A stretch of 64,000 nt of DNA from Bacillus sp. ISL-37 (GTDB lineage Bacteria > Bacillota > Bacilli > Bacillales > Cytobacillaceae), in assembly GCF_018613315.1 (NCBI RefSeq), contig NZ_JAGGQL010000015.1:1-64000 (forward strand), given 5' to 3'. Below the pieces are notes generated by a model that ran no database searches, was not told the DNA's origin, and worked only from the letters and a program-made list of their open reading frames with translations. Positions within the stretch are counted from its first letter, which is position 1, and every line of letters begins with the position of its first letter. Both the position numbers and the translations under genes were made by a program. Positions 58,632 to 60,601 of this stretch are shown here, piece after piece.

Positions 58632-58822
58632 TTTATTAGCGGAGAAATTCCCGCTATTGTATATAGAGGACACTTTTGAAGCAGAAATAGGAGGAGATAT
58701 TCCGGTTAAATGCTAAAAATAAGACAAAATCCAACGATTTGGATGAAATAAACGGAAAAACGACCCTTATTCTCAAGGAATTAAGGGTCGTTTCCAATTT
58801 AAACGGAATTTTTCCGTTTATC
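58632..58822. repeat. CGGAAA/TTTCCG-rich hairpin array
   Basis: TTAGCGGAGAAATTCCCGCTA (58632-58652) is a hairpin. Then a nested structure: outer ATAAACGGAAAAA (58748-58760) with TTTTTCCGTTTAT (58809-58821), inner AACGACCCTTA with TAAGGGTCGTT (58759-58769, 58782-58792). The CGGAA motif recurs (58674-58698, 58753, 58803). No coding potential. It fills the gap after the ugp terminator. Confidence 0.7.
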
Positions 58823-58865
58823 CTTCAACCACTATGAAATCAACATTCAGTTTTATTAAAGAAAG

Positions 58866-58892
58866 AAAAAAACTCCGTACGAACGGAGCTTT
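58866..58892 (-). terminator. Terminator of the small membrane-protein gene
   Basis: On the minus strand AGCTCCGT pairs with ACGGAGTT around TCGT, followed by a T-run (58866-58872). Confidence 0.9.
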
Positions 58893-58904
58893 TGTTGCAA
58901 AGGT

Positions 58905-59042
58905 TTAAATCTGGTTAGCAAGTATAGTTACAGCAGCGCTGAGCAATACAGTGGCTAATAATAATCCTGCATATAAGAAATTCTTTTGTCTCGCTTTTTT
59001 CCTTTGCATTTCCTCTGGTGTTAGCCAATTCTGGTTTGACAT
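58905..59042 (-). CDS. 45-residue single-pass membrane protein under riboswitch control
   Basis: Minus strand, ATG 59042 with an AAAGGAG site (59050-59056) 7 nt upstream; stop at 58905. The protein begins MSNQNWLTPEEMQRKKARQK and has one transmembrane helix (about 22-42, FLYAGLLLATVLLSAAVTIL), ending ANQI. The short polar N-terminus is rich in lysine and arginine near the membrane, so it probably faces the cytoplasm. It is the only gene between a GEMM-I riboswitch and a terminator, so it appears to be the riboswitch's sole target. No family recognised. Confidence 0.8.
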   Translation of the reverse strand: MSNQNWLTPEEMQRKKARQKNFLYAGLLLATVLLSAAVTILANQI

Positions 59043-59066
59043 CAATTTACTCCTTTAAGATTGATG
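59040..59066 (-). promoter_or_regulatory. Hairpin enclosing the ribosome site of the small gene
   Basis: CATCAAT (59066-59060) pairs with ATTGATG (59046-59040, including the start codon), with the AAAGGAG site in the loop. The upstream arm overlaps the 3' end of the riboswitch aptamer, so ligand binding could open or close translation. Confidence 0.5.
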
Positions 59067-59142
59067 GTAGCTGGCAGACTTTTTCCAATAGAAAGAGGTC
59101 CCTGTAGCTTTGCGTCATCATTTTTCAATGATTTTGCCCTAT
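59063..59142 (-). ncRNA. GEMM-I (class I c-di-GMP) riboswitch
   Basis: The minus strand reads GGGCAAAATCATTGAAAAAT, then GATGACGCAAAGCTACAGGG, ACCT, a variable stem, and GCCAGCTACCATC. This fits the class I aptamer: GGCAAA, stem ATCATT capped by a GAAA tetraloop, GACGCAAAGC tetraloop receptor side, ACAGGG, and closing GCCAGCTACC. A 3',3'-cGAMP-selective variant cannot be ruled out by eye. It ends about 20 nt before the start codon of a 45-residue membrane protein. Confidence 0.87.
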
Positions 59143-59145
59143 ATA

Positions 59146-59175
59146 AAAATATCCTATTTATGAAAATGCTTTCAA
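59146..59175 (-). promoter_or_regulatory. Candidate promoter of the riboswitch transcript
   Basis: On the minus strand TTGAAA (59175-59170), 18-bp spacer, TATTTT (59151-59146), ending a few bases before the aptamer. Confidence 0.45.
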
Positions 59176-59393
59176 TAGGTCTTTTTTCCTAAATGTCGAA
59201 ATATGGTACTTTATCGAACGCTAACAAATTTTTTTAGTGATAAATGTAGAATTTAGTATTTCAGTTAGGTACGTGAAAAAACACCGATTATTGATGTCTA
59301 AGATTGATACACCCCTTGAAGTGTAGAAGAGTGGATCATTTGACCATTCGATATACATTGCAACGTGGGGGAAGTATTTCTAGGGAAAGCAAA
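59176..59393. other. Spacer between HupE-like gene and riboswitch
   Basis: About 220 bp of AT-rich DNA; no gene or strong structure recognised. Confidence 0.35.
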
Positions 59394-59417
59394 ACCTCCA
59401 CCCAACAGGGCAGAGGT
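59394..59417 (-). terminator. Terminator of the HupE-like gene
   Basis: On the minus strand ACCTCTGCCC pairs with GGGTGGAGGT around TGTT (one mismatch), followed by TTTGCTTT. Confidence 0.8.
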
Positions 59418-59431
59418 ATTTGCATTCGATA

Positions 59432-60601
59432 CTATAAGAATAGCCTTTCGACGAGCCAGTAGGCCCCAAAGACAATGATTACTGTTGAACCATATTTGAT
59501 ATATTTGCTCGAATCCTTAAGACGATGAAGATATGTCAGCAAAGGAAGTAACAGCAGCACGATTAAAATCTGTACAACCTCGATTCCAATGTTGAAGCTC
59601 ACAAGTGCTGATGCAAGATTCCCCTTTGAGAGGTTCATCTCCTGAAGGATATTCGCGAAACCCAGGCCGTGAATCAACCCAAAGACAAAGGTTAGTCCCC
59701 ACCGATGGTTCACTTCTTTTCTGAAAATATTCTCCACTGCCACATAGATGATACTCAGTGCAATCACGGACTCCACAAATTTAGAAGGTAAATCCATAAT
59801 CCCCAGTACTGCAAGACTCAAGGTAATGCTGTGGGCAATCGTAAAAGAAGTAACAATCAGCGCATATTGCTTAAATGTTTGCTTACGCAGTAATAGTGCG
59901 AATAGGAACAAAAGGTGATCATAACCAGTTAAAATATGCGACATCCCCAGCTTGAAAAAGGACAGCCAGGAAGATGTGGGTTTAGTAACAGGTTTGGAAT
60001 CTTGCTCAGTGGCAGAGCCACCAGCCTGCTCACCACCAGCTTCTTGCTCCTGCTGATCCTCGGTCAGCAGAATCGTCCAGGACCGGTTCTCTCCCTGCAA
60101 TGCAGCCTGGCTTGAACCACCTGCATAAGTTGCGGTTAATAAATTCACATAATTGGTTTCAGCGTCGTTAAAATAAAGTCCATCATTGAGGGTTAGGGTA
60201 TCCCCTGGCTGATAAGCAGGGTATTTTAATGTAAGAGTAAGGAATTCCTTGTTTTCTTTTTTCTCTATTTTAATATCAACGAATTCTGGTTCTTGTTGTT
60301 CATTGCCTTTATCAAGAATAACTGTATGGGTAAGGAATTCGATAAGATGGTCTTGTTCCTCTTCTATTTCACTCATTTCAAGAACGTTATTCTCATTGAT
60401 ATCCATGTCCTCTTGAAGCTCGATGATTGACAAGGCATCGATGGAGAATTCAAAACTTGTTTCATCTTCTAAAAACTGAATAGTTGTGAAGCTGGCGCTG
60501 TAAGGGTGTGCAGTCGCCATGGAAGGAAATGCAGATAGAAAAATAGCGGAAATCACAAAGTATATCCCCAATTTAGAGCCTCTCTTGTTAAACATCTTCA
60601 C
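59432..60601 (-). CDS. HupE/UreJ-like membrane protein with extracytoplasmic EF-hand-like domain
   Basis: A 389-residue protein: signal peptide (about 1-31, ISAIFLSAFPSMATA), an extracytoplasmic domain (32-200) with an EF-hand-like loop DINENNVLEMSE (67-78), a Gln/Glu/Gly-rich linker, and a C-terminal HupE/UreJ_2 membrane domain of about six helices with GMSHILTGYDHLLFLFALLL, SFTIAHSITLSLA and FGLIHGLGFA, whose conserved His/Asp suit metal transport (Ni, Co or Cu). GTG start 60601 with GGAGG 7 nt upstream. Monocistronic. Metal specificity is not visible from the sequence. Confidence 0.82.
   Translation of the reverse strand: MKMFNKRGSKLGIYFVISAIFLSAFPSMATAHPYSASFTTIQFLEDETSFEFSIDALSIIELQEDMDINENNVLEMSEIEEEQDHLIEFLTHTVILDKGNEQQEPEFVDIKIEKKENKEFLTLTLKYPAYQPGDTLTLNDGLYFNDAETNYVNLLTATYAGGSSQAALQGENRSWTILLTEDQQEQEAGGEQAGGSATEQDSKPVTKPTSSWLSFFKLGMSHILTGYDHLLFLFALLLRKQTFKQYALIVTSFTIAHSITLSLAVLGIMDLPSKFVESVIALSIIYVAVENIFRKEVNHRWGLTFVFGLIHGLGFANILQEMNLSKGNLASALVSFNIGIEVVQILIVLLLLPLLTYLHRLKDSSKYIKYGSTVIIVFGAYWLVERLFL

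What the first reader, a model, noticed from the sequence alone, without database searches (positions are those of the whole stretch)
58905..59145. GEMM-I (c-di-GMP) riboswitch whose only visible target is a 45-residue membrane protein
The minus strand carries a near-textbook class I aptamer (GGCAAA, GAAA-capped stem, GACGCAAAGC, ACAGGG, GCCAGCTACC). It is followed by a 45-residue single-helix protein with a strong ribosome site and then a terminator. A hairpin that hides the ribosome site overlaps the aptamer's 3' end, suggesting translational control. A second-messenger switch devoted to one tiny membrane protein suggests an undescribed small effector of the motile/sessile decision. pgaCD in the same window makes c-di-GMP signalling plausible.
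Basis: partly seen in the sequence, partly recalled or inferred. Interest (0 to 1): 0.82.

Follow-up and report, generated by a model that had tools for sequence, protein, structure and literature searches.

The report
Riboswitch-controlled tiny membrane protein family
A c-di-GMP-sensing RNA sits directly in front of a 45-residue membrane protein, the pair recurs in many Bacillus-like genera, and the start codon is folded into the place where the sensor normally has its first helix, which points to an undescribed small player in the switch between swimming and settling.

Summary
An Rfam c-di-GMP-I aptamer (65.2 bits; cut-off 35) lies at 59063-59148(-), 20 nt before a 45-codon single-helix protein gene with its own terminator. 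The protein family has no Pfam or NCBIfam model and occurs in 86 of 193 genomes of the window's family and 97 of 397 sampled from its order. Of 142 distinct instances held, 86 have an aptamer 16-48 nt before the start; the others lack one there, some with remnants. In 61 of 86 the aptamer's second terminal C and the bases after it (usually AUCAA) pair with the start codon region, and ordinary P1 is missing (2 or more bp in 1 of 61, against 26 of 33 other aptamers): the start-codon stem seems to stand in for P1. Upstream regions are enriched for Spo0A-box cores (42 of 142; 2.3 expected) and sigma-D-like sites (43 of 142; 4.1 expected), which ties the protein to the motile/biofilm decision.

The parts
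59063..59148 (-). c-di-GMP-I (GEMM-I) riboswitch aptamer
   Evidence: Rfam RF01051, 65.2 bits, gathering 35; also found by model R1, built from 24 aptamers not near the small ORF (54.4 bits, locus L006)
59040..59066 (-). start-codon stem CAUCAAUCUUAAAGGAGUAAAUUGAUG, read as stand-in for the missing P1 helix
   Evidence: position; 0.71 of cells pair in register against 0.20-0.45 when slid (76 leaders, 28 distinct arm sets at register 0); shuffle test; P1 absent
59050..59056 (-). Shine-Dalgarno AAAGGAG, between the two arms of the start-codon stem
58905..59042 (-). small ORF, 45 codons plus stop; N-terminal W-L-T-P-E-E motif, basic stretch, one membrane helix
   Evidence: median dN/dS 0.46 over 614 non-independent pairs of family members
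58917..58979 (-). predicted membrane helix (about residues 22-42)
   Evidence: hydropathy; limits set by eye, coordinates computed from the ORF
58868..58893 (-). intrinsic-terminator-like hairpin after the small ORF
   Evidence: 3 found in 58700-59450 against 0.5 expected; one of the 3 is the same hairpin read on the other strand
59194..59200 (-). Spo0A-box core TTCGACA (reverse complement of TGTCGAA)
   Evidence: family-wide 42 of 142 against 2.3 shuffled
59148..59175 (-). weak promoter-like site TTGAAA-16-GATATT
   Evidence: 2 sites found, shuffles give 2.8; the window has no clean sigma-D site next to the aptamer (one search scores a TAAA-15-TCGATA about 69 nt upstream)

Best explanation
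A c-di-GMP-I riboswitch variant controls translation of a conserved, so far undescribed 42-46-residue single-helix membrane protein. Shown by sequence: the aptamer, the ORF, their conserved adjacency, the start-codon stem that begins at the aptamer's second terminal C, and the near absence of ordinary P1 where that stem exists. Inferred: the start-codon stem replaces P1, so that c-di-GMP docking in the junction stacks on it and holds the AUG shut (OFF at high c-di-GMP about 0.5; ON about 0.35; no effect about 0.15); transcription is controlled by Spo0A and, in many genera, by sigma-D. Inferred function: a small membrane adaptor, N-terminus inside by the positive-inside rule, made in a narrow window of the motile-to-sessile transition and acting on a membrane machine such as the flagellar stator or the exopolysaccharide apparatus.
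For: Aptamer over the Rfam cut-off; seven GEMM-I and 17 GGDEF matches in the genome. 86 of 142 distinct members have an aptamer 16-48 nt before the start, 89 within 100 nt; by hand-mapped labels the 89 fall in 7 families of the order. Stem of 5 or more bp in 61 of 86; P1 of 2 or more bp in 1 of those 61, against 26 of 33 non-sORF aptamers and 17 of 25 sORF aptamers scored as stemless, and 23 of 25 non-sORF aptamers of the window's own family. A stem of 6 or more bp is seen in 12 of 56 copies without a near aptamer, ten of them with aptamer remnants or a displaced aptamer (remnants judged by eye). 0A-box cores 42 of 142 against 2.3 shuffled and 3 of 33 at other aptamers; sigma-D-like score 9 or more 43 of 142 against 4.1 and 1 of 33 at other aptamers. 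Neighbours in 130 loci include MotA and MotB (7 each), LytR-CpsA-Psr (19) and Wzz (11).
Against: No binding or expression data. Folding does not decide the sign: with both terminal Cs blocked, P(AUG unpaired) rises from 0.20 to 0.46 on average over 69 leaders (an ON tendency), but only from 0.01 to 0.15 in the window. 56 of 142 members have no aptamer within 60 nt. The window copy lacks a clean sigma-D site. Stem covariation comes from pairs 4, 6 and 7; pair 5 does not exceed shuffles and pairs 1-3 say nothing. Two of the 25 stemless leaders (L020, L190) were misplaced by the script and two (L104, L193) have a start codon chosen too far downstream. Neighbour counts have no background control. 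Many rows are close relatives, so counts are not independent.
Confidence: 0.6

Rival explanations
1. Same unit, opposite sign: c-di-GMP binding draws the terminal Cs into the junction, weakens the start-codon stem and turns translation ON, so that the protein is made when c-di-GMP rises.
For: Blocking the two Cs lowers the stem from 0.62 to 0.28 and raises AUG accessibility from 0.20 to 0.46 over 69 leaders. A stem is mostly absent where the aptamer is absent (12 of 56), as expected if an unaided stem would lock the gene off. Bc2 upstream of cap is reported as an ON c-di-GMP-I switch (PMC11218506, passages).
Against: In the related cGAMP riboswitch the ligand contacts C75 while P1 starts at C76 (PMC6274999, passages; that these are the two Cs of the terminal CC is recalled), so ligand need not take the C used by the stem. 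The window RNA hardly opens in the calculation.
Confidence: 0.35
2. The aptamer is a relic with little or no ligand response, and regulation is by the promoter only.
For: Remnants of aptamers are visible by eye in several copies. The Bc1 aptamer of B. thuringiensis binds c-di-GMP but does not change downstream expression (PMC11218506 abstract).
Against: The junction is strongly kept: GACGCAAAGC exact in 74 of 86 and GGC in 80 of 86. Spacing to the start is 16-29 nt in 77 of 86.
Confidence: 0.12
3. The small ORF is a membrane-active peptide toxin or a leader peptide rather than an adaptor.
For: Size, single helix and basic N-terminus resemble such peptides.
Against: Found in many genera's genomes, with no match to the window protein in 72,556 plasmid records at E 0.01 and no confirmed relative of alignment A2 in viral contigs; conserved T-P-E motif in all 27 aligned rows; own terminator and a next large gene on the opposite strand, so no downstream target for a leader peptide here.
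Confidence: 0.1

Closest known systems
c-di-GMP-I (GEMM-I) riboswitch, Rfam RF01051
   Same: Junction core, GAAA-capped P2, GACGCAAAGC, terminal CC; scores above cut-off
   Different: P1 helix missing and apparently replaced by a start-codon stem; the word CUAAR of the usual P3 receptor occurs in 30 of 86 sORF-linked aptamers (some of these by chance in the loop) against 32 of 33 others
c-di-GMP-I-GGC riboswitch, Rfam RF03167
   Same: One relative (L037) of the same small-protein family is listed with this model (63 bits)
   Different: The window RNA matches RF01051; at the L037-type loci the start lies 43-48 nt away and no start-codon stem is scored
Bc1 (mcpE) and Bc2 (cap) riboswitches of B. 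thuringiensis
   Same: c-di-GMP-I aptamers in a Bacillus in front of single target genes (PMC11218506, passages)
   Different: Bc1 has up to 220 bases between aptamer and start codon, with two terminators; here the start codon is 20 nt away and no terminator lies between
c-di-GMP riboswitches of Bacillus methanolicus MGA3
   Same: Listed in front of sinI, of a c-di-GMP turnover operon and of two single genes of unknown function (PMC4342826, passages); one of these two might be this gene, not tested
   Different: No small-protein family, stem or promoter analysis in the passages seen

Membership tests
c-di-GMP-I riboswitch (RF01051) | Covariance-model score above the curated cut-off | tested here: met
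   65.2 bits against 35
c-di-GMP-I riboswitch (RF01051) | Residues equivalent to Vc2 G20, A47, C92 | tested here: met
   GGC core, GACGCAAAGC and terminal CC in the window; equivalence from passages of PMC11218506 and PMC6274999, mapping to Rfam columns partly recalled
c-di-GMP-I riboswitch (RF01051) | P1 helix formed by the two flanks of the aptamer | tested here: not met
   0 pairs in the window copy; 1 of 61 relatives with the start-codon stem has 2 or more bp. I treat it as a variant feature and not as exclusion, because the Rfam model leaves these flanks unpaired
c-di-GMP-I riboswitch (RF01051) | GAAA tetraloop with its usual P3 receptor (type I) | tested here: inconclusive
   GAAA loop present; usual receptor word absent in the window (ACCUCUUUC instead) and in 56 of 86 sORF-linked aptamers; the replacement may be another receptor
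c-di-GMP-I riboswitch (RF01051) | c-di-GMP binding and ligand-dependent expression | not testable with these tools
   needs in-line probing and reporters
Known small-protein families (Pfam, NCBIfam, PHROGs, PDB) | Profile match above cut-off | tested here: not met
   4 members, none above cut-off; 27 members; one hit at E 0.0075; alignment; best E 0.58

The most novel reading that the evidence does not exclude
A previously unrecognised family of about 45-residue membrane proteins is a dedicated effector of the motile-to-sessile decision in Bacillales. It is gated at once by Spo0A, sigma-D and c-di-GMP, and the gating RNA is a P1-less GEMM-I riboswitch in which the start-codon stem itself completes the ligand junction, so that the messenger holds or frees the AUG directly.
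Probability: 0.35. Interest if true: 0.82.

Novelty: new variant of a known kind. Interest (0 to 1): 0.64.

Why it matters
The c-di-GMP riboswitch targets named in the papers seen here are chemotaxis receptors, an adhesin, sinI and turnover enzymes. A widespread unnamed membrane protein that carries its own c-di-GMP switch plus Spo0A and sigma-D control would give Bacillales a direct, testable link between second messenger and membrane machinery. The leader would also show how an aptamer can do without its closing helix by borrowing the start codon.

Tried and rejected
An extended-P1 model (5' flank UUGAU pairing with AUCAA, seen by eye in L030) was dropped: in the stem-bearing set P1 of 2 or more bp occurs in 1 of 61, fewer than shuffled flanks give (6.4), and in 13 of the 22 aptamer-linked leaders with an exact CCGATA (22 of 89) this element ends only 8-13 nt before the core. 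SD pairing with the P3 strand (CUCUUU) was considered for the window only and not pursued. Flagellin does not separate genomes with and without the protein (59 of 61 have it). Position 11 is A in 5 of 86 aptamers, which could mean cGAMP preference there (a G20A change in a GEMM-I RNA binds cGAMP, PMC6274999 passages); the window has G.

Literature: searches listed 0, 4, 3 and 2 papers; none of their titles or abstract starts describes this unit, and I read none of these. Of the papers opened, PMC11218506 was seen as abstract, outline and passages; PMC4342826, PMC7793685, PMC6274999 and PMC4744006 as passages only.

Limits of the counts: the 142 instances are distinct upstream-plus-ORF sequences in the loci held. 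All but six places are covered; of the longer list I took 22 new loci and 19 regions. The start was chosen as the nearest ATG, which is too far downstream in L104, L123, L191-L194 and L201; the second copy in L097 is truncated. In one search the second C was misplaced in L020 and L190. Genus and family labels were typed by hand. The 33 control aptamers are five and 28 of the 29 new loci, which lists the best-scoring aptamers first; L047 was left out.

Full report
What is there. On the minus strand of the window, RF01051 (c-di-GMP-I) matches 59148-59063 with 65.2 bits against a cut-off of 35. The ORF starts at 59042, codes 45 residues and stops at 58905. A terminator-like hairpin follows at 58893-58868 and another closes the upstream gene at 59417-59394, so the small gene looks like a unit of its own. 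The upstream gene is HupE/UreJ-like; the next large ORF downstream lies on the other strand. The leader does not fold better than shuffled sequence (z -0.21), so the case rests on the covariance model and on comparison.

The protein is a family. Among 61 genomes (own plus relatives) 25 have a match by single sequence. With a 27-row profile, 86 of 193 genomes of the family and 97 of 397 sampled from the order match at E 0.001. Of 18 named loci, 4 are Mesobacillus, 5 Neobacillus, 7 unplaced Bacillus, and two bear other genus names (Chryseobacterium, Pseudomonas), which I take for mislabelled entries. M1, T8, P9 and E10 are invariant in the 27 rows and Y24 nearly so. No Pfam or NCBIfam model reaches its cut-off (four members), PHROGs give one hit at E 0.0075 among 27 members and the PDB nothing better than E 0.58. 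Among 84 ORFs of 45 codons, 614 pairs with moderate synonymous divergence show a median dN/dS of 0.46, 86% below 1 (pairs are not independent): moderate purifying selection on a real protein.

The RNA and the ORF travel together. I collected 142 distinct instances and searched their 130 loci with a covariance model built from 24 aptamers that are not near the small ORF. 86 have an aptamer ending 16-48 nt before the start, 68 of them at 20-24 nt; 89 lie within 100 nt. With seven aptamers in a 4.74 Mb genome the chance for one ORF is below 1 in 10,000 (my arithmetic). By hand-mapped labels the 89 fall in the window's family (70 of 94) and in six other families (19 of 48). Against: 53 of 142 lack an aptamer within 100 nt. 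Some of these keep remnants, judged by eye: eight B. cereus-group-like copies keep the P3 half and the stem but have lost the core. In L185 a complete aptamer between two such copies precedes a SinI-like ORF.

An unusual leader. In most relatives the terminal CC of the aptamer is followed at once by AUCAA, and the start codon is preceded by UUG, giving C-AUCAA / UUGAU-G with the start codon in the stem. Over 76 leaders, pairs 4-7 give 247 paired cells against a shuffle mean of 215 and a maximum of 232 in 2000 shuffles; the excess comes from pairs 4, 6 and 7, while pair 5 (63 against 61.4, maximum 64) does not exceed shuffles. In register 0.71 of cells pair over 28 distinct arm sets, against 0.20-0.45 when slid by 1 to 3 (the number of distinct sets differs between slides). 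Changes on both sides exist but are few in kind (A-U to U-A at pair 6, A-U to U-A or C-G at pair 7).

P1 is missing where this stem exists. In the cGAMP relative the ligand contacts C75 and P1 starts at C76 (PMC6274999 passages), which by recalled alignment are the two Cs of the terminal CC. P1 of 2 or more bp from the 5' flank is found in 26 of 33 aptamers elsewhere (shuffled flanks 2.5), in 17 of 25 small-ORF aptamers scored as stemless (4.5), but in 1 of 61 with a stem of 5 or more bp (6.4); among non-sORF aptamers of the window's own family it is 23 of 25. Two of the 25 (L020, L190) were misplaced by the script and two (L104, L193) have a badly chosen start, which does not touch the 1 of 61. 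A stem of 6 or more bp to the start codon occurs in 61 of 86 copies with a near aptamer and in 12 of 56 without; ten of the 12 carry remnants or a displaced aptamer. The simplest reading is that the start-codon stem stands in for P1. The P3 receptor also differs: the word CUAAR occurs in 30 of 86 against 32 of 33, and some of the 30 lie in the P3 loop by chance.

Sign of control. If ligand stabilises P1, it should stabilise its stand-in and shut the AUG (OFF). If ligand takes the shared C, it should open it (ON): blocking both terminal Cs raises mean AUG accessibility from 0.20 to 0.46 over 69 leaders, but only from 0.01 to 0.15 in the window. I lean to OFF with little confidence.

Promoters. 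Upstream regions hold the Spo0A-box core TGTCGAA, on either strand, in 42 of 142 cases; shuffles give 2.3 (maximum 5), the controls 3 of 33; of 200 same-composition 7-mers one reached this count, presumably the box or its complement itself. The window has one at 59200-59194. A sigma-D-like site (TAAA, 14-17 nt, CCGATA) scores 9 or 10 of 10 in 43 of 142 against 4.1 expected, and 10 of 10 in 21 against 0.12; controls 1 of 33. The window copy is among the 43 only through a TAAA-15-TCGATA about 69 nt upstream of the aptamer, so it has no convincing site of its own. Consensus words for Spo0A and sigma-D are recalled. Together these tie the protein to the decision between swimming, matrix and sporulation.

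Neighbourhood. In 130 loci with flanks of unequal length the commonest neighbour clusters are LytR-CpsA-Psr (19 loci), a family without Pfam match (15), LysM/NlpC (14), Wzz (11), VanZ (11), an AAA_31 ATPase of the tyrosine-kinase kind (9), two clusters not identified (8 each), MotA and MotB (7 each) and UDP-glucose dehydrogenase (7); a cluster of 12, nearly all ORFs overlapping the small gene itself, is left out (Pfam on one member each). In five loci the small gene follows motAB on the same strand; in two it faces them. There is no background count, so this is only a lead.

Position among known things. The RNA is a c-di-GMP-I riboswitch by core and score, in a variant form. c-di-GMP riboswitches before sinI and before single genes of unknown function were listed for B. 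methanolicus (PMC4342826 passages); one of those genes may be a member, which I did not test. The listings show no description of the family.

Noticed in passing
L003 (G000:C24:40575-40660, minus): GEMM-I aptamer directly in front of a SinI-like anti-repressor (Pfam SinI, E 8.7e-13) near SinR-like genes in the window's own genome; a c-di-GMP riboswitch before sinI is in print for B. methanolicus (PMC4342826).
   Followed up: partly
L185:3659-3742: GEMM-I aptamer before a SinI-like ORF (Pfam E 5.9e-12) between two copies of the small-protein gene with decayed aptamers, in a B. cereus-group-like genome.
   Followed up: partly
L002, L005, L007: Other GEMM-I aptamers of this genome precede, judged by eye, a STAS-like plus phosphatase-like pair, a long surface-protein-like ORF, and a membrane protein whose position holds the GGDEF match G000:C26:135492-135944.
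   Followed up: no
L033, L104, L106, L107, L117: Position equivalent to Vc2 G20 is A in these five small-ORF aptamers, which could mean cGAMP preference.
   Followed up: no
L185, L186, L187, L188, L189 upstream of the small ORFs: In six of the eight aptamer relics a different 9-10 bp pairing, 39 nt upstream, between the old P3 strand and the start-codon region is possible, perhaps a new hairpin after loss of the switch.
   Followed up: no
L185:4027-4140: Another small ORF with one hydrophobic stretch (37 residues, translated by eye) downstream of the SinI-like gene.
   Followed up: no
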